From NCBI RefSeq assembly GCF_014202425.1, contig NZ_JACHGT010000023.1, positions 1 to 64,000 of the forward strand: 64,000 bases of DNA, in the 5' to 3' direction. The stretch is from Phytomonospora endophytica. GTDB lineage: Bacteria > Actinomycetota > Actinomycetes > Mycobacteriales > Micromonosporaceae. The position numbers and the translations under genes are program-made. This document shows, one piece after another, positions 16,412 through 53,914 of the stretch. The number at the start of each line of letters is the position of its first letter. Position 1 is the first letter of the stretch. The notes under the pieces were generated by a model. The model was not told the origin of the DNA and did not search any database. It was given only the letters and a program-made list of their open reading frames with translations.

Positions 16412-16496
16412 GCGGGGATCTTGGCACAGGCGGTGCCGGTGATGATCCGGTGGCCGGGGTGGCGACGGGCTCCTCACCGGCGACTCGGCCCGCCCG

Positions 16497-34800: not shown

Positions 34801-35401
34801 GACCGGCTCCGGCGGCGGTCAGGCCGCGGCTCATCGCGTCGATGAGCGTGTCGGCCTCGGCGTAGGTGAGGCGGGTGTCGCCGTCGATGAGGAAGGTCGC
34901 CGACGGGTCGCGTCCAAGGGCGCGGTCCCACAGCTCGGTGAAGGTGGTCGGCGGGTGCGCGGGGGCGCCGCGGCCGAAGGTGTCCAAGACGAGGTGCCGC
35001 TCGCTCGCCGGGACGGGATCGACCTCGGCGCAGCGGGTATCGGGCGCCAGGGCGGCCACGCGGGTGATGCGCGCGGCGAGGACGGCGGCGAGGTCGACGG
35101 GGTCGCCGGGGCGTCCGGCGTGGACGGTGACGCCGGCCTCTCCCCGGGCGTGGCGGAAATCCACGCCGACGGGCCCCGGGGTCACGGGTTCGGCGTCGAG
35201 GTCCCAGGTGGTCACCAGGTCGCCCGGCGGAGCGTGGACGGCGGTGGCCAGGTCGGCGAGGGTATCGGCGTCGGCGACGCGCAGACTGACCGGCGGGCCG
35301 TCGGCGATCCGCACCGTCACCGTGTCCGATGTGGACAGTTCGGCCAGCACGAGGGCGGTGGCGGCGAGCAGCGCCTCCGGTGACGGGGGCGCCTGTCTCA
35401 C
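28832..35401 (-). CDS. NRPS-A: partial C-A-PCP-C-A-PCP-C
   Basis: A 2189-residue two-module synthetase. Residues 1-125 look like the C-terminal lobe of a condensation domain without its HHxxxDG half. Then A (about 130-620), PCP (LGGDSLNA near 683), C (760-1190, HHLVLDG near 895), A (1200-1680), PCP (HGGDSLKA near 1723) and a final C (1785-2189, HHIAFDG near 1909). The first A pocket reads DASSFVLVF, which I cannot match; the second reads DAFWLGGTF, a Val code. The terminal C must condense onto the first PCP of NRPS-B. GTG 35401 overlaps the upstream stop as GTGA and is chosen although the frame is open to 36367. It probably starts the peptide or accepts the acyl chain. Confidence 0.92.
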   Translation of the reverse strand: MRQAPPSPEALLAATALVLAELSTSDTVTVRIADGPPVSLRVADADTLADLATAVHAPPGDLVTTWDLDAEPVTPGPVGVDFRHARGEAGVTVHAGRPGDPVDLAAVLAARITRVAALAPDTRCAEVDPVPASERHLVLDTFGRGAPAHPPTTFTELWDRALGRDPSATFLIDGDTRLTYAEADTLIDAMSRGLTAAGAGRGDRVAICASPGARTVCALYAILRTGAAYVPVDPKEPPARRTFILGDVAPAVVVTDLDDLTADAPVLALAELGTGAPGPVPAHQPRPSDPVYVMYTSGTTGRPKGTVLTHAGVTNLVLGLAERFGLTPADRVLWHTRFSFDASVSELLLPVAAGTAIVIAPAGGDVGALVDLVEGHRVTLASMVPGVIDLFCELAGERTTLAPLRTVFSVGEALPAEVAEKFHRTAAAHGSAAVLENLYGPTETSVFATATPVPRDVGRITVGRPLTGVTVRVLGPGDRPAGIGAPGEICVAGTGVGLGYLNRPELHAEKFVADPFGDGVMYRTGDIGRWLPSGELDYLGRADDQVKVRGHRIELGEIETALAGLPGVDRAACCAITTGGATSLHALLVTGEPATVTRARAHLTEAVPAHMVPATFTRVDALARNANGKLDRKALARLVERRPRHGGLAPTGEREELLAAAVGGVLGTDPVFADDTFLDLGGDSLNAVLVTAALRGEGAALPPASLLGGGTIAEAARDLTTTTCAAADPWRQDGWEPFAWRPDPHRAPAEWRHVLARTGPVEAVLPLTPMQQSIAYSRARDDDGTAYVVQQIYDTTPDRLSPEALRAALADLAAAHPALRSRVLTAPDDGRQLHVVTAGTEPPLTVLTVDDPKALDEAVRAERLRPFGTDDDSLVRLTWATCGTAAVLIVTYHHLVLDGWSQDLIVGELVDRHDAHRAGRVPADVDVEAVVRRYGDAIRAQAWAALEVDEAYWSALLSDEDAPPPARWRSRGSDETAIGSVSVPLAPDVPVSVASLAERLSVTASAVVEAAFAVTLQQYAGARDVVYGKVVTARDLPVPGIAETAALVINTVAVRARATAATTAAELIGGLYRQSLDTFARARGPLTGALRAGGRRRGELNALYVHEGESQARSRTRAAGLRLRQASTERTDAEVTLVAGEEALTVLYDGRRLTRADMTLLLRRMAQTLDAMTADPGVALHAIPALLPGEVRPPGDATGTRTRVDVSFRKVAAARADRPALVKGEQVVTYAQLDEASDRVVGALRDAGVAPGASVGVPATKSVTSLVALLGVVKAGCVYVPLDPALPRERLAYLVSSSGASAVVATAADTALTEPFAGLVVDPEGAPGVCEPVPGSPEDPVYVMYTSGTTGRPKGVAVAHRAVTGLVEDVDYVGLSGDSVILQTGALDFDAATFEIWGAWLNGGTLVLDDLETKLDTAALGTAIRRHGVTHMWLTSSLFNLHVEADPTVFEPLAELLIGGERLSPEHVRRFYAANHATVLINGYGPTETTTFATTHRIERDVTDIPIGRPLPRAGVHVIGDDGPRGVGLPGELWITGDGLALGYVNDPDLTAERFVDLHGTGRAYRTGDLVAWNGDGTLGYLGRADDQVKVRGFRVEPEEVSAALRTLPGVDRAAVIARDSTAGARELVAFVVGAADLDPAAARTALGALLPAYAVPAEVRRLDNLPLTPSGKVDRRALERLAPRTQPAPPPQAGEGLDAVRAAFAHACGSPAMGAEDNFFEHGGDSLKAMRLVGELRRAGLDATIRDVLTAATPAALHAILSARAPLPPPGAPADTGGTTASPMSAATVRVYTAQQRHPGSLAYNVPFAVAFKGRADKASLARFLTAFTARHEALHSRYEVRDGRFEQSPVPGARCELETTDATGEPTALLRAFARPFPLDRPPLIRAALSHGPEHDVLLVDAHHIAFDGAALDIFHTELAAHLDGTPLPKATPYSAFARALAAHDTTADLAYWRKELTHPPAPVVLAMSADGGPTRLGVAVRHLPAEVRDALAVLAAGESATPFALYTAALAVLLQKYTMLEDLVIGTPVDNRAVGEFDGVVGMGVNTVALRVRPADTATVRELLREVRDTVLAAFEHQVLPFDELLTAVTADGHPAPRDLLRVMLAYRDAPREHAGTAVIGPISLEPKFDLELTVTAAPGGDVLGLEYSTGALDADAAELMTDHLVEILTAFPGAADASIAELGLT

Positions 35402-36234
35402 GGCGTGCCGCCGGGTGGGAGCGCCACGCGGGCGCGGCGATCGGCGAGCAGCGCTGAGAATCCCGCGAGGGCGACACCGGCGAGGGCGGCGGCGAGCAGG
35501 GCGGTGTCGGTGGCGATGAGCCCGGTGCCGGCCCAGACCACGGCTCCGGCGAAGACGAAGGCGTAGTGGGCGGTCACGGCGGCGGCCACCGAGGCGGTCC
35601 GGTGGCGCAGGACGCCTGCGGCGAGGCCGAAGACGGCGCCGACGATCGCCAGCGGGACGGTCGGCTGGACGATGGCGAACAGCAGCGCCGACACCGCGAC
35701 CACGGCCGGTGCCGACAGCCCGCCCGTGCCGAGCCGGTCGGTGATCACACCCCGGAAGAGCAGTTCGACGGCGACGGGGTGCAGCACGGCGAGCAGCACG
35801 AGCGCCGTCGGGGTGGCGGTCAGGGAGTCGAGTCCGGTGTCCTGGGCGCGGGCGGGGACGACGAGCCATCCGCCGCCGGTGTCGAGGAGGCGGGTGAGGG
35901 CGAAGTAGGCGAGTTGGAGGCCGGTGACCACCGCGAGGACCCAGACCATCAGGTTCCGGTCCAGTGCTGCCGCTCCTGCCGTGGGTGCGCCGAAGGCCCG
36001 CCAGCACAGCAGCAGGACGATCGCGTCGACGGCGATCCAGGCCCAGGGGGAGGCGGTCGGGGCGGTGGCGCCGATCGCCTGCGAGATCGCCGGTCCGGTG
36101 ATCTCCCCGGCCGTGCGCCACTGGTCGACGGCGGTGCGCACGGCGGCGATCACGTATCCGGTGACGGCGACGGCGGCGAGGTAGCCCAGGGCGGTCAGTG
36201 CCGAGATCAGGACCGCCGAGACGCCAGGACGCAT
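35398..36234 (-). CDS. CPBP-family intramembrane protease-like protein
   Basis: A 278-residue polytopic membrane protein with about eight hydrophobic segments and the CPBP/Abi core. Motif 1 reads VELLFRG (family E-E-x3-R, first Glu replaced by Val). The second motif has FAIVQ where F-x3-H is usual, so the His is replaced by Gln. An H-Y-A-F segment follows at motif 3. The lost residues make proteolysis doubtful. It sits between the exporter genes and NRPS-A, overlapping NRPS-A by GTGA. ATG 36234 has an AAAGGAAGAGG site; ATG 36252 would overlap the permease stop as ATGA and is an alternative. A role in self-protection or export is inferred from position only. Confidence 0.75.
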   Translation of the reverse strand: MRPGVSAVLISALTALGYLAAVAVTGYVIAAVRTAVDQWRTAGEITGPAISQAIGATAPTASPWAWIAVDAIVLLLCWRAFGAPTAGAAALDRNLMVWVLAVVTGLQLAYFALTRLLDTGGGWLVVPARAQDTGLDSLTATPTALVLLAVLHPVAVELLFRGVITDRLGTGGLSAPAVVAVSALLFAIVQPTVPLAIVGAVFGLAAGVLRHRTASVAAAVTAHYAFVFAGAVVWAGTGLIATDTALLAAALAGVALAGFSALLADRRARVALPPGGTP

Positions 36235-36248
36235 CGGTCCTCTTCCTT

Positions 36249-37367
36249 TCATCGGAATCGCCGGGCGCGGATGGTGAACCCCAGGACGAGGACCGCCGAG
36301 GCGCCGAGCAGGAGGGCCAGCGGTGTGGCGAGGGTCTGGACGCTCGCGCCGTTGACGGCGAGTTCACCGGCGTTGAGGTACCAGTGGGTCGGGAGGTAGT
36401 CGCCGACGCGTTGCAGCGCGTCGGGCATGATGTCGCGCGGCCACAGCGCGCCGCCGATCATGAGCATCGGCAGGTCGATGAGGGAGTTGACGGTGGCCGC
36501 GACGATCGTCGAGGGCGCGAAGCGGTAGACGAGCATGCTCTTGGCGACGCAGAAGGCGGCGAAGCACAAGGTCGCGGCGATGACGCCGCCGACCTGGCCG
36601 GGTGTCGAGCCGTAGGTGATGCCGGTGGCGAAGGGGATGATCGCCAGAACCGCGACGAGCTGCACGGCGGCGATGACGCCCATGCTGGCGAAGTACTGCA
36701 GGAAGTACGACGACTGCCGTAGCGGGGTGGTGCGCACGCGGTCGAAGACGCCGCGTTTGCGGTCCTCCAGCAGCAGGCCGGCCGCCGAGCCCATCATCAT
36801 CATGAGCCCGAAGGCGAGGTACCCCAGTGTGGACACCGCGCGGGAGACGTCTTCGGCGCTGCCGTCGGCGAAGTTGGTGTACTCCGCGTCGTACTTCTGC
36901 GTCAGGTATTCGCGCAGTCCGGTGTCGAAGCGGGCGGCGTCGCCGTCGGCGGCGGTGCCGACGGCGTTGACGCCGTTGAGGAAGGCGCCCACCCGGGCCT
37001 GGAGGGAGTCGGTGCGGTTGTTGTCGCCGCGGACATGGACCTCGGTGGCGGGCGCGTCACCGGCGATGACGGCGGCGGTGTGCCCGGCGGGGAAGACCAC
37101 GAGCATGTCGTAGTCGGCCGCGAGCAGGTCGTCCTGCCAGGTGCCGGGGTCGGCGACGGGCACGATGTCGCTGTCGCGGCCGAAGGTGTCGGTGAAGGCG
37201 GCGGTCAGGGCGGTGCCGTCCTCGTCGTGGACGCCGATGACCCAGGTGGCCTGCTGGGAGCTGATGGCCACGATGCCGATGTTCAAGGCGATCGGGATGA
37301 GCAGCAGGTACACCCAGCTGGACTTCTTGCCGAGCATGCGGCGCAGGTTGTTTTTCAGGATCGTCAT
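36249..37367 (-). CDS. ABC-2 type exporter permease
   Basis: This 372-residue permease has the ABC-2/YhgE layout: a transmembrane helix at about 20-40, a long extracytoplasmic domain (about 45-200) and five helices in the C-terminal half, with GVFDRVRTTPLRQSSYFLQ on the cytoplasmic side between helices two and three. ATG 37367 overlaps the stop of the sister permease gene as ATGA. It forms a heterodimeric exporter with that protein and the ATPase encoded upstream. In this operon the probable cargo is the lipopeptide product. Confidence 0.88.
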   Translation of the reverse strand: MTILKNNLRRMLGKKSSWVYLLLIPIALNIGIVAISSQQATWVIGVHDEDGTALTAAFTDTFGRDSDIVPVADPGTWQDDLLAADYDMLVVFPAGHTAAVIAGDAPATEVHVRGDNNRTDSLQARVGAFLNGVNAVGTAADGDAARFDTGLREYLTQKYDAEYTNFADGSAEDVSRAVSTLGYLAFGLMMMMGSAAGLLLEDRKRGVFDRVRTTPLRQSSYFLQYFASMGVIAAVQLVAVLAIIPFATGITYGSTPGQVGGVIAATLCFAAFCVAKSMLVYRFAPSTIVAATVNSLIDLPMLMIGGALWPRDIMPDALQRVGDYLPTHWYLNAGELAVNGASVQTLATPLALLLGASAVLVLGFTIRARRFR

Positions 37368-38494
37368 GCCGTCTTCCTCCGGCTCATGAGGACGCCGACG
37401 ACGCCGAGGACGGCCACGACGGCCCACAGGACGCCGACGTTGCGCCAGGTCGTGGCGAGCTGGTCGCCGAAGATGGCGCCGAACAGCGCGTCGCGGGCAT
37501 AGGTGTTCGGCGAGATCTGTTCGGCGCCGCCGAAGCCGGTGGCGATGAATCCGCCGCCGAGGAAGGTGAACCCGATCAGGCACACCTGGATCAGGCCGGT
37601 GGTCTTCTTCATGTCGCCGGTGGCGAGCATCAGGGTCATGCCCAGCGCGATCGCCAGCGCGCCGAAGCTGAACACGACGAGCATCACCACGGGTATGTCA
37701 CCCCAGCGCACGTCGAGCAACACCCCGGTGATCAGGACGTAGAGGCCGCCCTGGGCGAGGGTGACCAGGCTGAAGGCGGCGAGTTTGCCGGTGAACATCT
37801 GCCAGGTCCGCTGGGGCGCCAGCCTGGTCCGGGACGCCAGCGCCCCCAGGTGCTCCTCGCTGACACCGAAGGACCCGAACTCCGCGCCGAACAGCAGCAG
37901 GAACAGCAGCATGCCGACCGCGTAGTAGGTCAGGGCGGTCATCTCCCGGGTCTGCCCGACGGTCTCGACGTCGAGCGCGGTGCCGGTCAGTGCCCCGTCG
38001 GGGAGGGTCTCGCCGAGGGCGTCGACGGCGCGGGCGGTGTTGGCGCCGTAGTTGAAGCCGTCGACGACGGCGCGGACGATGATGGCGTCGACACCGGAGT
38101 ACTTCTCGCCGTAGACGTGGACGGTGGCGTGCCCGCCGCCAGCGGCCAGGTCGGCGCTGTAGTCGGCGGTGACGTGGAGCAGCGCGGCGAGTTCGCCGTC
38201 GGCGACGCGGCGGCGGCCCTCGTCGAAGGACGCGACGTCCTCGAAAGTGGCGACCCCGGCGAAGGCGGGGGTGGCGGTGAGCTGCTGGAAATAGGCGTCG
38301 CCGCCGGTGCCGGCGTCCTCGGAGAGGTAGCCGACGGCGGCCTTGCCGAAGTCCTCCTGCTGAAAGGAGGAGCTGAACGCGGTGCCGAGCACGAAGGTGA
38401 TGCCGACGAAAAGGCCCAGCCGCATCAGCGGGGTGCGCTTCTCCGCCCATGCCTTGAGCAGGGCGAAACGGAAGTGGGTGAGGAGGATGCGCAT
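37364..38494 (-). CDS. ABC-2 type exporter permease
   Basis: A 376-residue permease similar in layout to its neighbour: one helix near 28-45, a large extracytoplasmic loop (about 50-205) and five C-terminal helices (YYAVGMLLFLLLFGAEFG marks the first). It lies four bases after the ATPase stop and overlaps the next permease gene by four bases, so the three exporter genes are translated as a block. Likely export of the cluster product, giving self-resistance. Confidence 0.88.
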   Translation of the reverse strand: MRILLTHFRFALLKAWAEKRTPLMRLGLFVGITFVLGTAFSSSFQQEDFGKAAVGYLSEDAGTGGDAYFQQLTATPAFAGVATFEDVASFDEGRRRVADGELAALLHVTADYSADLAAGGGHATVHVYGEKYSGVDAIIVRAVVDGFNYGANTARAVDALGETLPDGALTGTALDVETVGQTREMTALTYYAVGMLLFLLLFGAEFGSFGVSEEHLGALASRTRLAPQRTWQMFTGKLAAFSLVTLAQGGLYVLITGVLLDVRWGDIPVVMLVVFSFGALAIALGMTLMLATGDMKKTTGLIQVCLIGFTFLGGGFIATGFGGAEQISPNTYARDALFGAIFGDQLATTWRNVGVLWAVVAVLGVVGVLMSRRKTA

Positions 38495-38498
38495 CGTC

Positions 38499-39440
38499 TC
38501 AGTCCCGCAGCTTCTTGCCGGTGAGGGTCAAAAACACCGTCTCCAGGGACGGGCGGCGCTCGCCGATGCTCTCCAGGGTCAGGCCGAGGGCGAGGACGCG
38601 GGCGGCGAGGTCGTTGAAGTCGGCGTCGGGCGGCAGGCGCAGGACGACGGTGGAGCCTTCCACGTCGGTCTCGGCCGCGGCGAGCAGGCCGTGGCGCAGG
38701 ATCTGGTCGGTGGCGTCGCGGGCGGCTTCGGGGCTGGGTGTCTCCAGGAGTACGACGCGTTCGTCGGTGTTGTCGCGGATGACCTTCTCCAGGGCACCGT
38801 CGGCGACGACCTTCCCGCCGTCCATGATGACGACGCGGTCGCAGAGAGCCTGGATCTCCTCCATGTAGTGGGAGGTGTAGACGATCGTGGCGCCGCCCGC
38901 GCTCAGCGTGCGCACCGAGTCGAGGATGTGGTTGCGGGACTGGGGGTCGACACCGACGGTCGGCTCGTCCATGATCAGCAGCTTCGGGTTGTGCACGATG
39001 CCGCAGGAGATGTTCAGGCGCCGCTGCATGCCTCCGGAGTAGGTCTTGGCGGCGTCCTTGCGGCGGTCCCACAGGCCGGTGAACTCCAGCGCGTCGCGGA
39101 CGGCGGTGTCCAGCGCGCGGCGGCGCAGGCCGTAGAGGCGGGCCCAGTAGGTGACGTTGGCCAGGCCCGACAGTTCGGGGAAGAACGCGTACTCCTGCGG
39201 GACGAAGCCGATGGCACGGCGGGCCTCATCCGACAGGCGCCGGGTGTCCTCGCCGAGGATCCGGACCTGTCCGGTGTCGGCGGTGACCAGCCCGAGCAGG
39301 AGGTTGAGGGTGGTGGACTTGCCGGCGCCGTTGGGGCCGAGGAGGCCGACGGTCTCGCCTTCGCCGATCGCGAGGCTGACACCGGCGACGGCCTTGGTCG
39401 CCTTGAAGGACTTGCGCAGGTCCTCGGCCTCAATGATCAC
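38499..39440 (-). CDS. ABC exporter ATP-binding protein
   Basis: The 313-residue DrrA-type ATPase has Walker A GPNGAGKST (about 36-44), signature YSGGMQRR (about 137-144), Walker B LLIMDEP (about 155-161) and a switch His in TSHYMEE. The C-terminal ~90-residue extension is typical of antibiotic and lipid exporters. The start is GTG 39440, which overlaps the end of the thioesterase gene by 11 bp. It powers the two permeases encoded next in the operon. Confidence 0.93.
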   Translation of the reverse strand: MIIEAEDLRKSFKATKAVAGVSLAIGEGETVGLLGPNGAGKSTTLNLLLGLVTADTGQVRILGEDTRRLSDEARRAIGFVPQEYAFFPELSGLANVTYWARLYGLRRRALDTAVRDALEFTGLWDRRKDAAKTYSGGMQRRLNISCGIVHNPKLLIMDEPTVGVDPQSRNHILDSVRTLSAGGATIVYTSHYMEEIQALCDRVVIMDGGKVVADGALEKVIRDNTDERVVLLETPSPEAARDATDQILRHGLLAAAETDVEGSTVVLRLPPDADFNDLAARVLALGLTLESIGERRPSLETVFLTLTGKKLRD

Positions 39441-40179
39441 GGACGGTCCTTTCGGTTGCGGCGGTCGCGAGGCGTGCGTGCACGTCCGCGGCGACGGAGT
39501 TCACCAGCGGCTGGTCGGTGTAGAGGAAGAAGTGGTCGCCGTCGGCGGTGCGGTAGTCCACGCCCGCCGTGGTCAGCTCGTCCCACGCCGACAGGCGGGT
39601 GTGGTCGACGGTGGCGTCGCGGCGGCCGTTGACGATCGTCATCGGGCAGTGCACGTCGGCGGCCCGGGGCGTCCACGCATAGGTCTCCGACAGTGCGAAG
39701 TCGGCGCGCAGGACGGGCAGGAACAACTCGCGCAGGCCCGGGTCGGCCAGGGCTTCGCGGGTTCCGCCGCCGTAGACCTCCAGGGCGGCGATGAACGCGT
39801 CGTCGTCGGCGATCTTGTGCAGTTCGGTGGTCTCACGGTCGGCATGGGGTGCCTGGCGGCCGCTGAAGACCAGGTGACCGGGCAGGTCGTCGGTGCGTTC
39901 CCGCAGCGCGTAGTAGGCCTCGTAGGTGATCAGGGTGCCCATGCTGTGTCCCCAGATCGCGTAGGGGACCCCCGGGCGGCGCAGACCGAGGATGTGTTCG
40001 GCGACGTCGGCGCCGGCCGCGACCGCGTCGGTCGTCAAGGGCTCACCGAGGCGGGGACCGCGACCGGGCAGCTCGATGGGCTGGACGTCGATGCCCGCCG
40101 GGAGCAGCCGCCGCCACTTGTAGAAGGCGGTGGCCGACCCGCCCGCGTGGGGAACGCAGAACAGCTGTGTGGCGGTCAC
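39430..40179 (-). CDS. Type II thioesterase
   Basis: A 249-residue alpha/beta hydrolase of the type II thioesterase family: the FCVPHAGGSA opening with the oxyanion region, nucleophile motif GHSMG near residue 79 and the catalytic His in GDHFFLY near 215. Such enzymes remove stalled or wrong acyl groups from carrier domains. Because no release thioesterase is fused to the NRPSs here, it might also take part in release, which is inference. GTG 40179 overlaps the KS-like gene stop (GTGA) and has a GGGAGG site. Confidence 0.92.
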   Translation of the reverse strand: MTATQLFCVPHAGGSATAFYKWRRLLPAGIDVQPIELPGRGPRLGEPLTTDAVAAGADVAEHILGLRRPGVPYAIWGHSMGTLITYEAYYALRERTDDLPGHLVFSGRQAPHADRETTELHKIADDDAFIAALEVYGGGTREALADPGLRELFLPVLRADFALSETYAWTPRAADVHCPMTIVNGRRDATVDHTRLSAWDELTTAGVDYRTADGDHFFLYTDQPLVNSVAADVHARLATAATERTVRDH

Positions 40180-42134
40180 GAGGCCCTCCCCTTACTGCGG
40201 CTGGCGGCGATCATCCCGAGGATCATGCGGGCGCGCTGGTGGAGCTTGAGGGGCACGGGGTCGACCCAGCAGCGCACCCGGTTCATCCGGTAGCGCGGAA
40301 GGCGGATCATCCGGCGCGCTCCGGGCGGGAACAGGGCGGTCATCTCCGGTGTCGCGCCCTGCGCGAAGGCCGCGGCGAGCTCGCGGACGCCGCGTTTCCC
40401 GGCCGGGACGGACGCGCGGCGGCCCCGGGTCGTGAGGTCCCTGCCCTCCCAGAGGTTGTCGGGGTGGGGAGCGTCGGACAGGTAGGCGCGCAGCGCGTCG
40501 ACGAGTCCTTCGCGATCACGTGCGGCCACGGCCAGGCGGAAGCGGCCGTGCTGGTACTGACGGCAGCTGCTGGTGTGGCAGAGCGCGGCGAAGTCGCCGT
40601 CCTTGGCCTGTTCGGCGAAGGCGAGATCGGCGGTGATCTTGGCGTGGAAGGAGTCGGCGTCGGTCGCCGAGACGCAGTAGGGCAGCTCGCCGTGCTCGTC
40701 CTCGCCGTCGCCCACCGGGGCCTCGACGGGGTCGGGTGCCGGGCCGACGGCCAGGAGGGTGTTGCTGCCGCCGAAGCCGTAGCAGTAGACGACGCCGAGC
40801 CGTTTCCCGTTCGCCGAGGGCTCCCAGTCGCGGGTCTCGGTGGGCACGTAGAAGGGGGTGTCGATGAGGTTCATCAGGTCGGTGGGGGTGTCGAAGTGCG
40901 GCACGGCCGGGATCTTGCGGTCGCGCAGGGCCTGGAGCAGCACGGTCAGGTTCGCCACGCCGATGGCCGAGTGGAGGTAGCCGAGGTTGCCGGTGAGGGC
41001 CGTCAAGGCGCAGAACTGGCTCTTCTGCGTGAACTCCCGCAGCCCGTTGGACAACCCGAGGGTCTCCAGGGCCTCCTCCATGGCGTGGGTGTAGCCCTCG
41101 GCGATGAGCAGGCCGACGTCTTCGGCCTCGACGCCGCTGGAGCGGATCAGGTCCTCCATCGCGCGGGCGACACCGCTGGGGGCGGCCTGGTCGAACTTGC
41201 CCTCGCTGCCGTTGTTGTTGTGCGACCAGCCGTGGATGACGCCGTGGACGGCGTCACCGTCCTCGATGGCCCGGTCGAGGCGTTTGACGACGACGAAACC
41301 GGCGTACTCCCCGTGGAAGGAGCCAACGTTGCGGCGGTCGAAGAGCTTGGTGACGCTGCCCTCGGTGGGCGCGACGAACAGGCCGGGACTGTTGTAGACC
41401 CGCACCGGCGTCAGATCGAGGTAGAGCCCCCCGGCCAGGGCGGTGTCGCAGGACCCGCGCCGGACGGCCTCACACGCCGAGATCATCGCCGCCATCGACG
41501 AGGGGCAACTGGCGTCGATGGTGTAGGCCGGGCCGCGCAGATCGAAGGCCAACGCGACCCTGGTGGCCATGCCACTGGTCCAGTTGCCGAGCATCTCGCT
41601 GACCGGTTCGGCGTAGTGCGTGGCCTTCATGGCCAAGCCGAGATAGGACTGGAGCTGGTCCTTGGTGTAGTTGAAACCGACGTAGACGCCCGTGCGGTGC
41701 CCACGGGAGTACTCCCCCATCAGCCCGGCGTCCTCCAGCGCCCGAAACGCCGTCTCCAGCGCGATGCGCCCCTGCGGGAACAGATGCGCCCCGGCGTCGG
41801 CGTCGAAGCCGAACAGGTCATGGTCGAAGCGCTGGATGTCGTCGATGTAGGAGCCCTTGGCGAACTGCCGGGGCCGGGCGCACATGCCCGGCGGCGCCAC
41901 CGGCGCGACCTGCCGCCCGCGAACGACGGGCGCACGGCGGATCGTGCTGCGCTCCTCCCGGACGGTCCGCCAGACCTCCTGGTAGTCGTCGGTGTCGAAG
42001 GCCCGCGCGCCCATCCCGATCACGGCGACGGGAACACGCTCGTTGAGCTTGCGCAGGATCTTCACGGCCGTCTCGCGTGAGACCGATCCGTCGCGCAGAC
42101 CGTTGAGGACCAGATCGGCGATGTCAGGCTGCAC
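40176..42134 (-). CDS. KS-like protein with Cys but without catalytic histidines
   Basis: A 652-residue ketosynthase-fold protein with an N-terminal docking-like helix pair (about 1-30, LVLNGLRDGSVSRETAVKIL), KS (about 32-435) and a post-KS linker ending IRLPRYRMNRVRCWV. No AT or ACP follows. The nucleophile region is DASCPSS near residue 207, so Cys is kept. The usual HGTGT histidine position reads AEGYTH (near 343), and the second His (N-x-GH) reads NLGY (near 381). Decarboxylative condensation should therefore be lost while acyl transfer may remain, as in non-elongating KS0 domains. GTG 42134 has a GGGAG site and overlaps the AT-like gene by 11 bp. It may hand the polyketide chain over to the NRPS. 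Confidence 0.85.
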   Translation of the reverse strand: MQPDIADLVLNGLRDGSVSRETAVKILRKLNERVPVAVIGMGARAFDTDDYQEVWRTVREERSTIRRAPVVRGRQVAPVAPPGMCARPRQFAKGSYIDDIQRFDHDLFGFDADAGAHLFPQGRIALETAFRALEDAGLMGEYSRGHRTGVYVGFNYTKDQLQSYLGLAMKATHYAEPVSEMLGNWTSGMATRVALAFDLRGPAYTIDASCPSSMAAMISACEAVRRGSCDTALAGGLYLDLTPVRVYNSPGLFVAPTEGSVTKLFDRRNVGSFHGEYAGFVVVKRLDRAIEDGDAVHGVIHGWSHNNNGSEGKFDQAAPSGVARAMEDLIRSSGVEAEDVGLLIAEGYTHAMEEALETLGLSNGLREFTQKSQFCALTALTGNLGYLHSAIGVANLTVLLQALRDRKIPAVPHFDTPTDLMNLIDTPFYVPTETRDWEPSANGKRLGVVYCYGFGGSNTLLAVGPAPDPVEAPVGDGEDEHGELPYCVSATDADSFHAKITADLAFAEQAKDGDFAALCHTSSCRQYQHGRFRLAVAARDREGLVDALRAYLSDAPHPDNLWEGRDLTTRGRRASVPAGKRGVRELAAAFAQGATPEMTALFPPGARRMIRLPRYRMNRVRCWVDPVPLKLHQRARMILGMIAASRSKGRAS

Positions 42135-43152
42135 GGCGGAGTTCTCCCGTCTGGCGGAAAGCGGCGTAGGCATGGACGTCGGCGCCGCCGATGCGCCGCA
42201 CGGGCAACAGCAGCTCGCCCTCCAGCGCACGCAGCGAGGCGTCGATCTCGTCGGGGCTGTGTCCCTTGTGGAGGCCGTTGTCCATCCAGCAGCGGGTCAG
42301 CGTGCGGATCACCGCGGCGTCGGCGCGGGAGACCACCGGCGCCGGGTCCTCGCTCAGCCCGGCCTCGGCGATCAGGCGCTTGACCCGGCGGGCCAGCTCG
42401 TTGACCGCGGCCCGGCTCTCGGGCGTGCCACGCCGGTCGCGCGTCCCGGCGATCTCACCGAGGACGCGCTCGGCGAGGAAACGGGCATTGAAGTACTTGC
42501 CGATGTTGAGGTTGTCCAAGACGACATGGGCGTTGCGCGGCACGTCGAAGGCACCGAGCACGACGTCCTCGGGCAGCAGCGGCCGCACCGCGTCGGCCAG
42601 CACGGCACCCGGCCCGATCTCCAGGACCGTGTCGGCACCGGCCGCACCGATCCGCTCGACGAGGGCCGCGGCGTCGATCGGAGCGCCACACGTCAAACCG
42701 GCGGCGGTGCGCAACATCCCCGGACGGTCCCGGGTCGGCGCCGGACCGCTCGCCTCGAACACATCGCGGGCGATGCGCCGAAACCACTTCCCGCGCACCC
42801 GCTCACCGCGCACGACACGCAGCGCGTTGTCCAGTTCGAGACCACCGGCCACGACCAGCGCGGCGAGATAACCGACGCCCTTGCCGACGAAGACGTGCCC
42901 GGGAACGCCGTAACGCTCCCGGAAGGCACCGTAGAAGCCCACACCCAGCGCGAGCACGGCCGTGGCCCGCTCGGTCTCACCGAGCTCGCGGGCGTCGGGG
43001 CCGCCGTACCAGATCGCGTCCTCCAGCACCGTCGTCAGCCGCCGGTCGTGTTCGCGGACGGCCTCCCACACCGCGTCGTTCTGCTCGAAGAGTTCGAGGC
43101 CCATCCCGACGTGGAAGGAGTCCACGTCGGGGAACAGCACCGCCAGTCGCAC
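42124..43152 (-). CDS. Acyltransferase-like protein lacking the active-site serine
   Basis: A 342-residue protein whose first ~215 residues follow the PKS acyltransferase fold (start AVLFPDVDSFHVGMG matches the FPGQGSQ...GMG entry; a VLEIGPGAVL strand occurs near 190). The nucleophile elbow GHSxG is GKGVG near residue 90, so both the Ser and its preceding His are gone. The C-terminal ~120 residues are helical and unmatched. It cannot act as a normal acyltransferase; a scaffold or binding role with the KS-like protein, whose gene it overlaps by 11 bp, is plausible. GTG 43152 has a GGGAG site. Confidence 0.8.
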   Translation of the reverse strand: MRLAVLFPDVDSFHVGMGLELFEQNDAVWEAVREHDRRLTTVLEDAIWYGGPDARELGETERATAVLALGVGFYGAFRERYGVPGHVFVGKGVGYLAALVVAGGLELDNALRVVRGERVRGKWFRRIARDVFEASGPAPTRDRPGMLRTAAGLTCGAPIDAAALVERIGAAGADTVLEIGPGAVLADAVRPLLPEDVVLGAFDVPRNAHVVLDNLNIGKYFNARFLAERVLGEIAGTRDRRGTPESRAAVNELARRVKRLIAEAGLSEDPAPVVSRADAAVIRTLTRCWMDNGLHKGHSPDEIDASLRALEGELLLPVRRIGGADVHAYAAFRQTGELRRAA

Positions 43153-43177: not shown

Positions 43178-46100
43178 TCAGCGCTTCTCGTCGGCCAGGA
43201 ACGTGATCAGCGAGTCGGCGTCGATGTCGCCGCTCTCCAGCTTGGTGAGCATGTCCTCATAGGACTCCCGCGGCGCTTCGGCGGCCGCGGGCTCGGCCTC
43301 GGTGGCGGCGCCGGTGAGTTCGGTCAGACGCGCGGCCATCTCGTCGGGTGTGGCGTAGGTGAACATGTCGGAGATGTTGAGGACGTCGTCGAAGCGCGCG
43401 TTGAGGGCCTTCATCACCGCCGTCGCCGAGATCGAATCGCCGCCAAGGGCGGTGAAGCTGTCGAAGATGTCGATCTCCTCCAGCCCCAGGACCGAGGCGT
43501 AGATGTAGGCCACCGCGCGTTCGGTCTCGGTGAACTCCTCGGCGGGCTTGCCCAGCAGCGCGATGTTCTCCACGTCGACCGGCGCGCGACCACCCTCGCC
43601 GGTGGCCGGGTCGGGCCGGTTCGCGGCGTGCCGGCGCACGACCCGGTCGATCGGGCCGGAGTAGGCGAAGGGGAACCAGTCCTCGCCCACCGCGGAGAAC
43701 AGCCCGGCGTTCAACGCACCGGGGACGATGCCGGTGACGTCGTGGACGAGCACGGCGTTGAAAGCGGCGATGCCCGACTGGGTGGTGAGGCTGTCGAAGA
43801 AGGCCTCGGTGTCACCGAGCCCGTTGTCCTTGGCCATGCCCGTCTCGCGCCACCCCGGCCAGTTGATCGACTTGGCGTTGAGGCCGCTCTTGCGCAGCTG
43901 AAGGACCGTGGCGTCCATGAACGCGTTCGCCGCGGCGTAGTCGGACTGGCCGGGACCACCCAGGATCGCCGTCATCGACGAGAAGGTGATCACGAAGTCC
44001 GGGCGATCGCCGTCGAGGGCGGCCAGCAGATTGCGCAGCCCGGTGACCTTCGGCGCGAGGACACGGTCGAACTCCTCGGGCGACTTCGAGTACAAGAACC
44101 CGTCCCCGGCGACACCGGCGGCGTGCACGATGCCGCGCACCGGCCCGTACTTCGCACGCATCCGCTCGACGAGCTCACGCGTCGCGGCGATGTCGGCGAT
44201 GTCGGCGCAGGCGAGTTCGGCCACACCGTCGTGGTCTTCGACATCGAGGATGTTCTCGATGACCTGGGCGGTCTTACCGCCCGGCTCGGCGGCGAGGATC
44301 CCCTCCCACTCGGCGCGATCGGGCAGCGGACGGCGGCTGACCAGGACGAAGTTCGCCTTGTCGATGTAGGACAGCAGCGCCGCCGCGGCCGAACCGAGCG
44401 AACCGGCGCCACCGGTGACGAGGTAGAAACCCTCATCGGTGACATCCACCGGCCGCAGCACGTCACGGTCGAGGGTGCGCTCCTCCAGCTGCGGAACATG
44501 CCGCTCGCCCTTGCGCAGCGCGACCGACACCCGCCCGGGAACAGTGGCCAGAACCTCGGCGGCGACGACGTCGGCGGGGGTCTCGGCGTCGATGTCGACG
44601 GCGGTGAACACGAGGTTGGGCGCCTCGTGACGCAGGGAACGGATCATCGCCAGCTGAGCGGCGTGGGCGGCGTCGACGAACGGTTCGTCGCCGGTGACCT
44701 GGTCGGCGTGGTCGGCGACCACGGCGACCTCGACACGGCCCTTGCAGTGCGTCATCAGGCCCTTGACCAATGCGGTGAACCCCCGCAGGCCCAGCTCAAG
44801 GCCCCGGGTCACCTCCACCTCGGTGAGCTCGCGTCTCCCGGGCCGCGCCGAGGTCAGGTCGACGACCCGCGCCAAGGCACCCACACCGAGTTCGGCCAGT
44901 GCCCAGGCCACGCCCTCGGCGGTCGGCTCGGTGGTCACCAGGTGCGCCGAGGGGACCGAACGCCGCCCGGCGAACACGATCCGGTGCACCTCGGCATCGG
45001 ACAACCTGGCCAGGACGGCGTCCATGTGCGGCCCGGCGTCCCCGACGACCAGCACCGGCCCGCTCGCCGCCTCACTGGCGGGAAGCGCACCCTCGGGGCG
45101 CCATCCGACCCCGTAGTAGGAACTGGCGACGAAGTCGTCCATCTGCGCGATGCGCTTCATCGCGTACTGGTCGATCGAGGCGATGGTGTTGCCGTCCTCG
45201 TCGATCAACGTGGTCTTGAAGCTCATCAACTCGGTGCGCCGGCCCGAGGTCCGCTCGCTCTTGCAGTAGAACCGCGCCGGCAGCGGCCGGTGCATCGTCA
45301 ACCCGGTGTAGAGCATCGGCAGGTACACGATCGGCGACATGAACACCAGGAACGGCACGATCGACACCGCGTTGTCCAGCAGCGCCGGGTGCATCGGGAA
45401 GCGCCCGATCTGGTCGTGGTACTCCTCGGGGAGTTCCATGACGCCGTAGCAGACCTCGGGGTCACGGGTCGACCGCAGCGCGGCGGTGAGGTTGCGCCAG
45501 GTGGGACCGAACTGGGTCAGCGGCGGGAAACTGCGCCTCTCCAAATCGGGGTCGGCGAGCAGTTCGGCGAGCGTCGGGTGCTCCCCCGCCGGCTCCTCGG
45601 TGTGCGCGCGGCCGTGCCCGTGGGCGTGGACGGTCCACGTCCCGTCGCCGGGTTCGACACGGCTGACGACCTCGACGGCGGCGCGGCCGTCCTCGTCGCG
45701 GACGATGATCTGCGCGGTGGCGTCGGTGTTCTCGTCGAGGATCAGCGGTGCCTGGAACACCAGCTCGTCGATGGCGATCCGCTCGACACCGAAGTGGGCG
45801 CGCAGCGTCTCGGTGATCAGCTCGACGAACACCGACCCGGCGATGAGGTTCTTGCTCATCACGATGTGGTCGCGCACCGCCCAGTGCTCACGCATCGACA
45901 GGTCGGCCTCATAGACGCTCACCGACTGCGTGTCGACGACCTGGCGGGTCACCAGCGGCTGCGCCACCGGCGCACCGGTCGCGGCGCGCTCGCCGGTGGT
46001 GGAGTCGGCGGCGGTCAGGCGCGTGGTGCGCGGCTCACCCCAGTGGCGGGTGCGCTCGAAGGGGTAGCCGGGCAGGGGGACGCGGTTGGCCTCGGGGCCG

Positions 46101-48028
46101 GCGAGTTCGTCGAAGGGGATCTGGGCGCCGCGCACGTAGTCGCGGGCCAGTTCGGTGGTGGTCATGGTCCGTGACAGGCCCTCGGCGGCCAGGACGGACT
46201 TGACGCGGGCGGCGCTGTCGGCGTTGAGGTCGCCCAGGGCGCTCTCCTTGATGTCGCCGCGGGCGAGGTCGCTCTTGCGGTCGGAGACCACGCGGTGGGC
46301 GCCGACGAACACGCCACGCGAGGGGTTCTCGGCCCAGCCGGCGTCGCGGCAGGCGTTGAACTTCGCGACGAGTTCGTCCATGGTGGACGCCACGATCGCC
46401 AGGCGGTGGGTGAAGTGGTCCCGGCCGCAGGTGGCGGTGAAGCAGACGTCTTCGAAACGCGCGGGTTCAGCGTTGAGGTAACGGTCGTAGGAGTCGAGGT
46501 AGGCGGCGAAGGCCTCGGCGGTCTTGGCCGAGACGGTGAAGACGCGCGGGCGGCGCTCGGTGTCGTCGGGCCGTGCGGAGGGCCGGTGGTCTTTGAGGAT
46601 CACGTGGGCGTTGGTGCCGCTGAACCCGAAGCCGCTCACCCCGGCGTAGCGGGGGGTGTCGCGCTGCGGCCAGGGGGTGTTGCGGTCGACGACGTAGACC
46701 GGCGAGTTGACGAAGTCGATGTGCGGGTTGGGTTCTTCGAAGTTCAGGCTGGCCGGGATGACCTCGTTCTTCATCGACAGCAGAACCTTGATGACGTTGG
46801 CGATGCCGGCGGCGCCGACGGTGTGGCCGATGTTGCTCTTGACCGAGCCGATACCGCAGATCTGCTTGCGGTCGGTGACCCGCGCGAAGGCGTTGGTCAG
46901 CCCGAGTACCTCGATCGGGTCGCCCAGCGGGGTCCCGGTGCCGTGCGTCTCGACGTACTCGACCTCGCCACCGTCGATGCCGGCGCGCCGCCAGGCGTCG
47001 AGGACGAGCTCCTCCTGGGCGCGCGGGTTGGGCGCGGTGACACCGTTGGAGGCGCCATCGTTGTTGGTGGCGGTGGCGGCGATGACGCCGTAGATGTGGT
47101 CGCCGTCGCGTTCGGCGGCCTTGAGCGGCTTGAGGATCAGCGCACCGGCGCCTTCACCGAACACCGAGCCCGAGGCCTTGGCGTCGAAGGCGCGGACCCG
47201 GTTGTCGGGGGCGACGACCGCGCCGGGTGTGGCCGTGCGGACCATGATGTCGTCGATGTCGACGTGGTCGGTGTCGGCGCCCTTGTAGCTCAAGGTGATG
47301 CCGCCGGCGATGGCCATGTCGCACTCGCCGTTGTGCAGTGCCTGGATGGCCATGTGCATCGCCACGAGGCTGGAGGAGCAGGCGGTGTCGACGACGTAGG
47401 CGGGGCCGCGCAGGTCGAGGTGGTAGTTGATCCGGCTGGCGAGGATGCCCTCCCAGACGCCGCTGAGCTGGTTGCGGTCGAACTGGATCATGTACCGGTA
47501 GTAGTTGGAGTTCGTGCCGTCGCGGCCGACGAAGCAGCCGGTGCGGCTGCCGCGCATCTTCTCACCGGGGTAACCGGCGTCCTCCAGCGCGCTCCACGCC
47601 TGTTCGAGGAAGACCCGGTGCTGCGGGTCCATGCCCGCCGCCTCGTGCGGGGTGATCCCGAAGAAGCGGGCGTCGAACTTGTCGATGTCGTGGAGGTAGG
47701 CGCCCACGAAGCGTTCGAGGTCCTCGGAGGCCTCGGTGTGGTGGACGTGGTCGTAGAACTCGGCGTAGTGCGGGTTGGCGAAGACCTGCTCCTCAAGGAG
47801 CTTGTCGGCCGGTTTCGACACGTAGCAGTTGCGGTTGCCGAGCAGGTTGTCCCAGTAGTGGCCGACGTCGGGCGACATCGGCAGGCGGCAGGACATCCCG
47901 ATCACGGCGATCTCCGCCGCGGCCGGGCCCTGCCCGTCCGAGAGCGCTTCGAGGGCCTCCACCGCGTCCTGCTTGGACAGCGCGCCCTCGGCGAGCTTCT
48001 CAAGGATCACGTGCCTCACGGCCTTCAT
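43178..48028 (-). CDS. PKS-2: AT-less module KS-DH-KR-ACP
   Basis: A 1616-residue polyketide synthase with no acyltransferase. N-terminal docking-like helices (ILEKLAEGALSKQDAVEAL) precede KS (about 35-460) with the complete triad: DTACSSS near 215, HGTGT near 361, NIGHT near 401. A post-KS linker follows, then a hot-dog DH (about 690-960) whose H-x3-G-x4-P motif is altered (RDHIVMSKNLIAG), with HPALLDNAV as the Asp region. KR lies at about 1000-1460 (VTGGAGSLG near 1205; SSMTAI Ser and QSDYAAANAF Tyr present), ACP near 1528 (LGGDSISA) and a C-terminal docking-like helix (MLTKLESGDIDADSLITFL). ATG 48028 has a GAAGGAG site. Malonyl units must come from the stand-alone transferase. Whether the DH works is uncertain. 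Confidence 0.9.
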   Translation of the reverse strand: MKAVRHVILEKLAEGALSKQDAVEALEALSDGQGPAAAEIAVIGMSCRLPMSPDVGHYWDNLLGNRNCYVSKPADKLLEEQVFANPHYAEFYDHVHHTEASEDLERFVGAYLHDIDKFDARFFGITPHEAAGMDPQHRVFLEQAWSALEDAGYPGEKMRGSRTGCFVGRDGTNSNYYRYMIQFDRNQLSGVWEGILASRINYHLDLRGPAYVVDTACSSSLVAMHMAIQALHNGECDMAIAGGITLSYKGADTDHVDIDDIMVRTATPGAVVAPDNRVRAFDAKASGSVFGEGAGALILKPLKAAERDGDHIYGVIAATATNNDGASNGVTAPNPRAQEELVLDAWRRAGIDGGEVEYVETHGTGTPLGDPIEVLGLTNAFARVTDRKQICGIGSVKSNIGHTVGAAGIANVIKVLLSMKNEVIPASLNFEEPNPHIDFVNSPVYVVDRNTPWPQRDTPRYAGVSGFGFSGTNAHVILKDHRPSARPDDTERRPRVFTVSAKTAEAFAAYLDSYDRYLNAEPARFEDVCFTATCGRDHFTHRLAIVASTMDELVAKFNACRDAGWAENPSRGVFVGAHRVVSDRKSDLARGDIKESALGDLNADSAARVKSVLAAEGLSRTMTTTELARDYVRGAQIPFDELAGPEANRVPLPGYPFERTRHWGEPRTTRLTAADSTTGERAATGAPVAQPLVTRQVVDTQSVSVYEADLSMREHWAVRDHIVMSKNLIAGSVFVELITETLRAHFGVERIAIDELVFQAPLILDENTDATAQIIVRDEDGRAAVEVVSRVEPGDGTWTVHAHGHGRAHTEEPAGEHPTLAELLADPDLERRSFPPLTQFGPTWRNLTAALRSTRDPEVCYGVMELPEEYHDQIGRFPMHPALLDNAVSIVPFLVFMSPIVYLPMLYTGLTMHRPLPARFYCKSERTSGRRTELMSFKTTLIDEDGNTIASIDQYAMKRIAQMDDFVASSYYGVGWRPEGALPASEAASGPVLVVGDAGPHMDAVLARLSDAEVHRIVFAGRRSVPSAHLVTTEPTAEGVAWALAELGVGALARVVDLTSARPGRRELTEVEVTRGLELGLRGFTALVKGLMTHCKGRVEVAVVADHADQVTGDEPFVDAAHAAQLAMIRSLRHEAPNLVFTAVDIDAETPADVVAAEVLATVPGRVSVALRKGERHVPQLEERTLDRDVLRPVDVTDEGFYLVTGGAGSLGSAAAALLSYIDKANFVLVSRRPLPDRAEWEGILAAEPGGKTAQVIENILDVEDHDGVAELACADIADIAATRELVERMRAKYGPVRGIVHAAGVAGDGFLYSKSPEEFDRVLAPKVTGLRNLLAALDGDRPDFVITFSSMTAILGGPGQSDYAAANAFMDATVLQLRKSGLNAKSINWPGWRETGMAKDNGLGDTEAFFDSLTTQSGIAAFNAVLVHDVTGIVPGALNAGLFSAVGEDWFPFAYSGPIDRVVRRHAANRPDPATGEGGRAPVDVENIALLGKPAEEFTETERAVAYIYASVLGLEEIDIFDSFTALGGDSISATAVMKALNARFDDVLNISDMFTYATPDEMAARLTELTGAATEAEPAAAEAPRESYEDMLTKLESGDIDADSLITFLADEKR

Positions 48029-52660: not shown

Positions 52661-53914
52661 TCAGGGTCCGCTCGGGTCGAGCGCGGCGAAGACGTCGGCG
52701 GTGCGGGTGTCGCGCAGGAGTTCCTCGACGCGCACCCGGCGCTCCTCGGGCCGCACGCCCTTGGTCCGCAGGATGGTCAGCAGCAGGTCCATCGCCTCGC
52801 GCATCTCCTCGGTGGTGGCGGCGCGTTCTTCGCGGCCGAGGGCGGTGTTCATGCGCCGCAGCCGGTGGTAGGGCTTGACCACACCGGTGTCGTAGGCCTC
52901 GGCGTCGAAGTTGGTGTTGCGGGTGGCCGCCGCGACGCCCAGGGCGCGGGAGACGAAGGGGAAGGTGGTGCGCTCGATCATGCGGTGGAGATCGGTGCGG
53001 CCCTGCTCCCGGTCGTAGGGGAAGGTGCGGATCTCGGAGTAGGTGTGCCGGCTGAACTTGGCCAGGGTGTCGCCGGGGCCGAGCTCGACGGCGTAGTTGA
53101 AGCCGTTCATGCGCAGGTAGGTCAGGTCGTCGACCCAGCGCACGGGTTCGACGACCTGCCGGGCGAGCAGGTCGGGGACCTCGGCGGCCGAACCGTAGGG
53201 ACGGCCGGTCACGTTCGACAGGACCGGGATGCGCGGTTCGGCGATGGCGATGCCGGCCAGATCCTCCCGCAGCGCGGCGGCGACGGGTTCCATGAGCGCG
53301 CAGTGGAAGGGGACGCTGACGTTGAGGATCACCGCGCGCAGCCCGCGCTCCTCGGCGATCTCGTGCACGCGCAGGACGGCCGCGCGATGTCCGGCGACGA
53401 CGATCTGCGTGTTGGAGTTGAGGTTGGAGACGCTGACGACCTCGTGGGTCTCTTCGGCGACGGTGGCGCACAGGGCGGCGATCTCGGCGTGGTCGCGGGT
53501 GCGGATCGCCAGCATCAGGCCGCGTCCCTCGGGGACGGCCTGCTGCATGTACTGGCCCCGGCGGCGGGCCAGGCGCACGGCGTCGGGGAAGGCGATCGCA
53601 CCGGCGATGGTCAGCGCGGTGATCTCGCCGAGGCTGTGACCGGCGACGAGGTCGACGTCGAGATCCTCGCGTTCCATGAGGACGCGGAACTGGGCCATGC
53701 TGTGTGTGAGAATCGCCGGCTGGGTGTTCTCGGTGCGGGCGAGTTCGGCATTCGTCGACGCGAAACACAGTTGGCGCATATCGAGACCGAGAGCATCGCT
53801 GGCCTCTTGGAATGTGTCGTCGGCGACTTTTTCAGAAGCGCACAGGTCGCGTCCCATACCGACGTACTGCGCGCCCTGCCCCGAGCACAGCAAGGCTTTC
53901 TTGATCAATGACAT
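52661..53914 (-). CDS. Stand-alone malonyl transferase (trans-AT)
   Basis: A 417-residue discrete acyltransferase of the FabD/trans-AT type, expected to load malonyl units onto the ACPs of the two AT-less modules. It shows the entry motif CSGQGAQ near residue 10, nucleophile GHSLGE near 93, an Arg in the R-x-x-x-M region, and PFHC near 200 where the Phe-His pair indicates malonyl rather than methylmalonyl. A VELGPGDTL strand occurs near 285. The C-terminal ~110 residues extend beyond the usual catalytic core. ATG 53914 begins the conserved strand; ATG 53929 is an alternative. It is the first gene of the long minus-strand operon. Confidence 0.9.
   Translation of the reverse strand: MSLIKKALLCSGQGAQYVGMGRDLCASEKVADDTFQEASDALGLDMRQLCFASTNAELARTENTQPAILTHSMAQFRVLMEREDLDVDLVAGHSLGEITALTIAGAIAFPDAVRLARRRGQYMQQAVPEGRGLMLAIRTRDHAEIAALCATVAEETHEVVSVSNLNSNTQIVVAGHRAAVLRVHEIAEERGLRAVILNVSVPFHCALMEPVAAALREDLAGIAIAEPRIPVLSNVTGRPYGSAAEVPDLLARQVVEPVRWVDDLTYLRMNGFNYAVELGPGDTLAKFSRHTYSEIRTFPYDREQGRTDLHRMIERTTFPFVSRALGVAAATRNTNFDAEAYDTGVVKPYHRLRRMNTALGREERAATTEEMREAMDLLLTILRTKGVRPEERRVRVEELLRDTRTADVFAALDPSGP

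What the first reader, a model, noticed from the sequence alone, without database searches (positions are those of the whole stretch)
40176..42134. KS-like protein that keeps Cys but loses both catalytic His
The nucleophile region reads DASCPSS, while HGTGT is replaced by EGYTH and N-x-GH by NLGY. In KS enzymes these histidines drive malonyl decarboxylation, so this protein should bind and transfer an acyl chain without extending it. It has no AT or ACP behind it and is encoded right before the thioesterase. It could act as a gate passing the polyketide to the NRPS.
Basis: partly seen in the sequence, partly recalled or inferred. Interest (0 to 1): 0.75.

Follow-up and report, generated by a model that had tools for sequence, protein, structure and literature searches.

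The report
Paired inactive-looking polyketide enzymes
Next to a peptide-polyene antibiotic-type assembly line sits a conserved pair of genes whose proteins look like a chain-building enzyme and its loading partner but have lost the parts needed for that chemistry, and the same pair occurs in unrelated ruminant-gut bacteria, so it probably does a new job that has not been described.

Summary
A 652-aa discrete ketosynthase-like (KS-like) protein is encoded at 40176-42134 (-). It keeps the nucleophile Cys210 (DASCPSS). His1 is Glu346, the catalytic Lys is Thr381 and His2 is Tyr386. Orthologous pairs occur in three MAGs of one Oscillospiraceae genus, in nearly the same gene context. All four KS-likes keep Cys, Glu and Tyr and form one clade (100/100); 16 neighbouring or epifadin KSs keep the full catalytic set. 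This looks like refunctionalisation, not decay. The assembly line (discrete AT, two KS-DH-KR-ACP proteins, TE, ABC exporter, NRPSs) resembles the iterative trans-AT PKS of epifadin (EfiB/C/D), which lacks the pair. By the epifadin analogy the peptide feeds the PKS, so 'gate to the NRPS' is not supported. Best guess: a docked, non-elongating acyl-holding/transfer protein at the end of the polyene PKS, acting with the pseudo-AT. Loss of PPant-side Thr residues and gate loop makes a purely structural (chain-length-factor-like) role a serious rival. Function is untested.

The parts
40176..42134 (-). KS-like protein, 652 aa, discrete, with N-terminal helical docking segment (res 1-33), KS fold and post-KS linker; no ACP
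41505..41507 (-). codon of retained nucleophile Cys210 (DASCPSS); invariant in 4/4 family members
41097..41099 (-). codon of Glu346 at the HGTGT His position (EGYTH); Glu in 4/4
40992..40994 (-). codon of Thr381 at the catalytic Lys position (T, S, S or deleted in the four)
40977..40979 (-). codon of Tyr386 at the N-x-GH His position; Tyr in 4/4
42124..43152 (-). Discrete pseudo-acyltransferase (AT-like), 342 aa: GHSLG is GKGVG, small subdomain with catalytic His deleted, C-terminal extension of the EfiB-type ATs kept; overlaps the KS-like gene by 11 nt
42877..42879 (-). Gly codon in place of the AT catalytic Ser
39430..40179 (-). Thioesterase (PF00975; orthologs beside the KS-like genes or in the same cluster)
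43178..48028 (-). PKS2: KS-DH-KR-ACP without AT; its KS clades with the PKS2 KSs of the other KS-like-bearing clusters (96/99)
48085..52653 (-). PKS1: KS-DH-KR-ACP without AT
52661..53962 (-). Discrete trans-acting acyltransferase with intact GHSLG and catalytic His (EfiB-like)
38499..39440 (-). ABC transporter ATPase
   Evidence: same gene type in G1158, G1159, G1211 clusters by sequence inspection
37364..38494 (-). ABC-2 membrane protein
36249..37433 (-). ABC-2 membrane protein
35398..36252 (-). CAAX-protease-like (Rce1-like) membrane protein
28832..35401 (-). NRPS, A-T-C-A-T-C (real start near 35401; starts with an A domain after a C remnant)
17149..28809 (-). NRPS, A-T-E-C-A-T-E-C-A-T-E by motifs
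54398..62494 (+). NRPS, C-A-T-E-C-A-T plus a non-catalytic C-terminal tail as in EfiA; probably hands the peptide to PKS1

Best explanation
SHOWN: the KS-like protein and the AT-like protein are a conserved, co-encoded pair in an epifadin-type, AT-less PKS/NRPS cluster. The pair has lost, in all four known members, the residues for malonyl decarboxylation (KS) and malonyl loading (AT), while the KS-like keeps its Cys, a KS fold and an N-terminal docking-type helix pair. It also acquired a new set of invariant residues (S209, P211, E346, E353, Y386). INFERRED: the KS-like docks at the end of the two-protein polyene PKS through its N-terminal segment. It takes the finished polyenoyl(-peptide) chain from the PKS2 ACP onto Cys210, or holds it non-covalently, without extending it. 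It thereby ends iteration and presents the chain for release, most simply to the thioesterase encoded next to it. The pseudo-AT is its dedicated structural partner, occupying the place an AT would take beside a KS. Steps inferred and untested: docking partner, acylation of Cys, hand-over to the TE, KS-like:AT-like complex.
For: Family: 4 members; one KS-like clade with support 100/100; residue pattern 4/4 against 0/16 in the other KSs; EfiE, read directly, also has HGTGT/NIGH. 18 positions invariant in 16 active KSs are lost in all four, and 22 KS-like-specific invariant positions exist. AT-like next to KS-like in 4/4, with Ser to Gly and the subdomain deletion in 4/4. Synteny across phyla. 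PKS2 of the window clades with PKS2s of KS-like-bearing sets, not with the second, pair-less sets in the same clusters. Purifying selection between G1158 and G1159: dN 0.27 against dS 2.4, dS saturated. KS fold with post-KS linker: AF2 pLDDT 70.5, Z about 50 to trans-AT KSs. Precedent for Cys-only transacylation: HTM KS3 (PMC8456789).
Against: Both HGTGT threonines, the conserved loop Asp (D308 to N), P317/N318 and H460 are also lost in all four. These lie on the gate and PPant side of the active site (loop roles in PMC7138838; assignment of the Thr residues to PPant, and of D308 to the loop-2 Asp of FabF, is from general knowledge). The KS0 read here (HTM KS3) lost only His1. There is no ACP in the protein. 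G1158's PKS2 lacks the C-terminal docking tail that would meet the KS-like N-terminus. No biochemical data; product unknown. Cys conservation in four sequences is weak evidence by itself (other, structural Cys are conserved too).
Confidence: 0.42

Rival explanations
1. The pair is non-catalytic: KS-like and AT-like form a structural/regulatory partner of PKS2 (analogous in role to the chain-length factor of type II PKS), setting chain length or organising the iterative assembly; Cys210 is kept for structure or by chance.
For: Complete loss of catalytic residues in both proteins, apart from the KS Cys, 4/4. Loss of HGTGT Thr and gate-loop residues. Strict linkage to one PKS2 subtype. Identity of the pair to the window falls faster than that of the active KS/AT (KS-like 37-38% vs PKS2 KS 49-51%; AT-like 26-30% vs AT 44-48%).
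Against: CLFs lack the Cys, whereas here it is kept 4/4 with a newly invariant S209 and P211 around it. Epifadin iterates without such a partner (PMC11310079).
Confidence: 0.33
2. The KS-like is a release/cyclisation enzyme: Cys210 is acylated and Glu346 (with Tyr386) acts as base for an intramolecular attack, as the TAS1 KS makes a tetramic acid.
For: TAS1 shows that a terminal KS can catalyse Dieckmann release (PMC7698770), and TAS1 KS appears among the structural matches (6kog). E346 is invariant. The product class is tetramate-forming in epifadin, and the window has no EfiE.
Against: TAS1 needs a catalytic His (H322) that is absent here. No substrate evidence. A TE gene is next door.
Confidence: 0.13
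3. Gate from polyketide to NRPS.
For: Cys is retained and NRPS genes follow downstream (parts list).
Against: The downstream NRPS starts with an A domain and all C domains have plausible donors. In epifadin the flow is peptide to polyketide (PMC11310079). In G1211 the TE lies at the other end of the block, so 'right before the TE' is not a fixed feature.
Confidence: 0.06
4. It still elongates, with other residues in place of His/Lys.
For: KS fold and Cys kept.
Against: No invariant His other than H297; Lys lost; the malonyl-side loops are rewritten.
Confidence: 0.03
5. Decaying gene or assembly artefact.
For: Loss of catalytic residues.
Against: Intact ORFs in four genomes of two phyla, same substitutions, purifying selection.
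Confidence: 0.03

Closest known systems
Epifadin gene cluster (efi), Staphylococcus epidermidis IVK83 plasmid pIVK83
   Same: Discrete AT (EfiB) with the same C-terminal extension, two AT-less KS-DH-KR-ACP proteins (EfiC, EfiD), NRPS upstream, thioesterase, ABC export.
   Different: Epifadin has no KS-like/AT-like pair; its third KS (EfiE) is intact and fused to ACP-C-A-PCP-CT. It also has EfiO and EfiP, which I did not see in the window.
Non-elongating ketosynthases (KS0) of trans-AT PKSs, e.g. hangtaimycin KS3
   Same: Cys kept, HGTGT His lost, trans-AT KS fold with linker.
   Different: HTM KS3 keeps His2 and sits in a polypeptide with an ACP; here His1, Lys and His2 and the surrounding PPant-side residues are gone, the protein is free-standing and paired with a pseudo-AT.
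Chain-length factors (KS-beta) of type II PKS
   Same: KS fold without condensing activity, encoded beside an active KS.
   Different: CLFs lack the Cys and are type II (general knowledge); here the Cys is kept and the relatives are trans-AT type I KSs.
TAS1 KS (tenuazonic acid synthetase)
   Same: KS with altered catalytic set at the end of an NRPS/PKS line.
   Different: TAS1 keeps a catalytic His; fused to an NRPS module; fungal.

Membership tests
Type I (trans-AT) ketosynthase fold family | KS sequence family and thiolase-like fold with KS linker | tested here: met
   PF00109/PF02801; AF2 model matches trans-AT KSs, Z about 50
KS0 (non-elongating KS) | nucleophile Cys retained | tested here: met
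   C210, 4/4
KS0 (non-elongating KS) | His of HGTGT lost | tested here: met
   E346, 4/4
KS0 (non-elongating KS) | rest of the triad (His2) retained, as in the Cys-Asn-His motif of HTM KS3 | tested here: not met
   Y386 and no Lys, 4/4; PMC8456789
KS0 (non-elongating KS) | followed by an ACP to receive the chain | tested here: not met
   protein ends after the KS linker; G1211 has a free-standing ACP two genes before KS-like
KS0 (non-elongating KS) | transacylase activity | not testable with these tools
   needs intact-protein MS
Chain-length factor (KS-beta) | active-site Cys replaced | tested here: not met
   Cys kept 4/4
Chain-length factor (KS-beta) | heterodimer with an active KS that sets chain length | not testable with these tools
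   needs complex reconstitution
KSQ loading ketosynthase | Cys replaced by Gln, His retained | tested here: not met
TAS1-type cyclising KS | catalytic His (H322 of TAS1) retained | tested here: not met
   no equivalent His; PMC7698770
Active acyltransferase (for 42124-43152) | GHSxG serine and catalytic His | tested here: not met
   GKGVG and subdomain deletion, 4/4
Epifadin-type cluster | discrete AT plus AT-less KS-DH-KR-ACP pair with an NRPS | tested here: met
Epifadin-type cluster | EfiE (KS-ACP-C-A-PCP-CT) terminal protein | tested here: not met
   none among the large ORFs of the window; the only KSs on this contig are PKS1, PKS2 and KS-like

The most novel reading that the evidence does not exclude
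A conserved, previously undescribed pseudo-KS/pseudo-AT pair that works as a new terminating or chain-length-setting device for iterative trans-AT polyene PKSs, with a Cys-Glu-Tyr active site in place of Cys-His-His(-Lys).
Probability: 0.4. Interest if true: 0.75.

Novelty: new variant of a known kind. Interest (0 to 1): 0.62.

Why it matters
How an iterative trans-AT PKS counts its rounds and stops is, as far as I know, not understood (the epifadin authors knew of only one other iterative trans-AT PKS, chejuenolide; PMC11310079). A conserved protein pair that cannot extend chains but is retained next to one PKS2 subtype is a testable candidate for the stop or release step. The Cys-Glu-Tyr arrangement would also be a new way to use the KS fold. 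It marks a family of unexplored peptide-polyene clusters in a high-GC, actinobacterium-like genome and in Oscillospiraceae, including ruminant-gut species.

Tried and rejected
(1) Close orthologs: none in about 100 relatives, 397 order-level and 394 class-level genomes, none by exact 8-mer scan of 84,980 species, none in plasmid records (best listed 33% identity, ordinary KSs) or viral contigs. (2) AT-like protein in 396 phylum-level genomes: only itself. (3) A custom NxGY-KS DNA pattern gave 7 hits; two are orthologs (L008, L012), five are ordinary KSs with HGTGT/HGNGT kept. The pattern missed G1211 (one-residue deletion), so the family is under-counted. (4) AF2 of the AT-like is too poor (pLDDT 52) to use. 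(5) No model coordinates were available, so pocket geometry was not measured. (6) dS saturated, so dN/dS is only indicative. (7) G1706 carries the PKS2 subtype, but its contig ends just after that gene, so presence of the pair cannot be told. (8) A full-text search for a discrete ketosynthase-like/acyltransferase-like trans-AT pair returned no paper, and a search for stand-alone ketosynthase-like proteins lacking His returned only two unrelated ones. (9) The idea that another His fills the catalytic positions: rejected by conservation.

Full report
Observation. The KS-like gene runs from GTG 42134 to 40176 on the minus strand, 652 aa, inside a tight operon. It overlaps the upstream gene by 11 nt and its stop overlaps the TE start. 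Pfam recognises both halves of a ketoacyl synthase. Aligned with active KSs of the same clusters, it keeps Cys210 (DASCPSS), has Glu346 for the HGTGT His, Thr381 for the catalytic Lys and Tyr386 for the N-x-GH His.

Partner. Directly upstream (42124-43152) is a discrete acyltransferase-like protein. Against the eight active discrete ATs of these clusters it has Gly in place of the Ser of GHSLG (GKGVG) and lacks the small subdomain that carries the catalytic His; it keeps the C-terminal extension typical of EfiB-like ATs. It is a pseudo-acyltransferase.

Relatives. No close ortholog was found in about 890 related genomes (with overlap between draws) with the KS-like query, nor in a peptide-pattern scan. 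A DNA pattern for KSs with N-x-G-Y found two orthologs in Oscillospiraceae MAGs, L012 (G1158) and L008 (G1159). A search of the family gave a third, G1211, at 40% identity to L012. All three lie in one genus of 17 genomes. All carry AT-like beside KS-like, with GSGVG, GNGVG or GRGIG. G1158 and G1159 also share the order PKS2, AT-like, KS-like, TE, followed by an A-first NRPS, and all three carry ABC-exporter-type genes (an ATPase and two membrane proteins by sequence inspection). G1211 has the same kinds of genes in another order, and a free-standing ACP stands before the pair where PKS1 would be.

Not decay. The four KS-likes form one clade, 100/100, apart from 17 other KSs. All four have Cys, Glu and Tyr at the key positions, while the 16 other KSs read, and EfiE, have the full set. 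Eighteen positions invariant in 16 active KSs are lost in all four and 22 positions are invariant in the KS-likes and absent from the active KSs, including S209 and P211 around the Cys, E346, E353 and Y386. Between G1158 and G1159, dN is 0.27 with dS saturated. KS-like identity across clusters (37-38% to the window) is lower than for the PKS2 KS (49-51%), so the pair evolves faster but under constraint.

What the assembly line is. The best characterised match is epifadin of S. epidermidis: EfiB (discrete AT), EfiC and EfiD (KS-DH-KR-ACP), an iterative trans-AT polyene PKS fed by a peptide from EfiA (PMC11310079). The window has AT (52661-53962), PKS1 and PKS2 of the same build, and the + strand NRPS ends in a carrier domain plus a non-catalytic tail as EfiA does. 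By motif order the NRPS proteins read 28832 (A-T-C-A-T-C), 17149 (A-T-E-C-A-T-E-C-A-T-E), then the + strand protein (C-A-T-E-C-A-T), then PKS1 and PKS2. This order is inferred. Epifadin has no KS-like/AT-like pair; instead its last protein EfiE has an intact KS.

Structure. AF2 on an 11-row alignment gives a KS fold (mean pLDDT 70.5, many core blocks 80-96, weak C-terminal part) with Z about 50 to trans-AT KSs, and two N-terminal helices at residues 3-15 and 20-30 in the position of the docking segments of PKS2 and EfiD/EfiE. The AT-like model is too weak to use.

Mechanism. Elongation is very unlikely: His1, Lys and His2 are gone, and no conserved His replaces them. Acyl transfer through Cys210 is possible: a KS0 with only His1 missing works as a transacylase, and its Cys is essential (PMC8456789). 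The GFGG loop that forms the oxyanion hole with the Cys amide (PMC7138838) is kept as GFGG or GYGG. Against this, both HGTGT Thr, the loop residues D308, P317 and N318, and H460 are lost in all four, which is far more than in the KS0 examined. I therefore put acyl holding or transfer at the end of the polyene PKS at 0.42, a structural chain-length-factor-like role at 0.33, and a TAS1-like cyclising release at 0.13.

Novelty. It is not a member of the KS0 class as usually defined (His2 and ACP tests not met), nor of CLF, KSQ or TAS1-type KSs. It may still work like one of them. I rate it a new variant of a known kind: a conserved pseudo-KS/pseudo-AT pair of iterative trans-AT peptide-polyene clusters. 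The existence of the family is well supported; the function is not tested.

Noticed in passing
L009 1381-1517, L010 2434-2570, L011 7034-7170, L013 2710-2846, L014 5150-5286: Five other KSs (four Streptomyces, one Archangium) have NIGH changed to NIGY but keep HGTGT/HGNGT and the Cys; the four Streptomyces ones look related to each other. Possible separate group of His2-less KSs.
   Followed up: no
L031 (G1211:C4 162364-162759): In G1211 the first PKS of the pair-bearing set is reduced to a free-standing ACP with a C-terminal docking tail, next to AT-like and KS-like.
   Followed up: partly
L024-L026 (G1158:C47): The Oscillospiraceae cluster carries two AT-PKS1-PKS2 sets; only the second is followed by the pseudo-pair and TE.
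   Followed up: partly
window 35398-36252: CAAX-protease-like membrane protein gene between the ABC-2 genes and the NRPS; its position suggests export or self-protection.
   Followed up: no
window 17149-28809 and 54398-62494: No thioesterase domain found in any NRPS of the window; 17149 ends in an E-type domain with HHLVVDA instead of HHxxxDG.
   Followed up: partly
window 15434-16477: Aminoglycoside-phosphotransferase-family kinase at the cluster edge.
   Followed up: no
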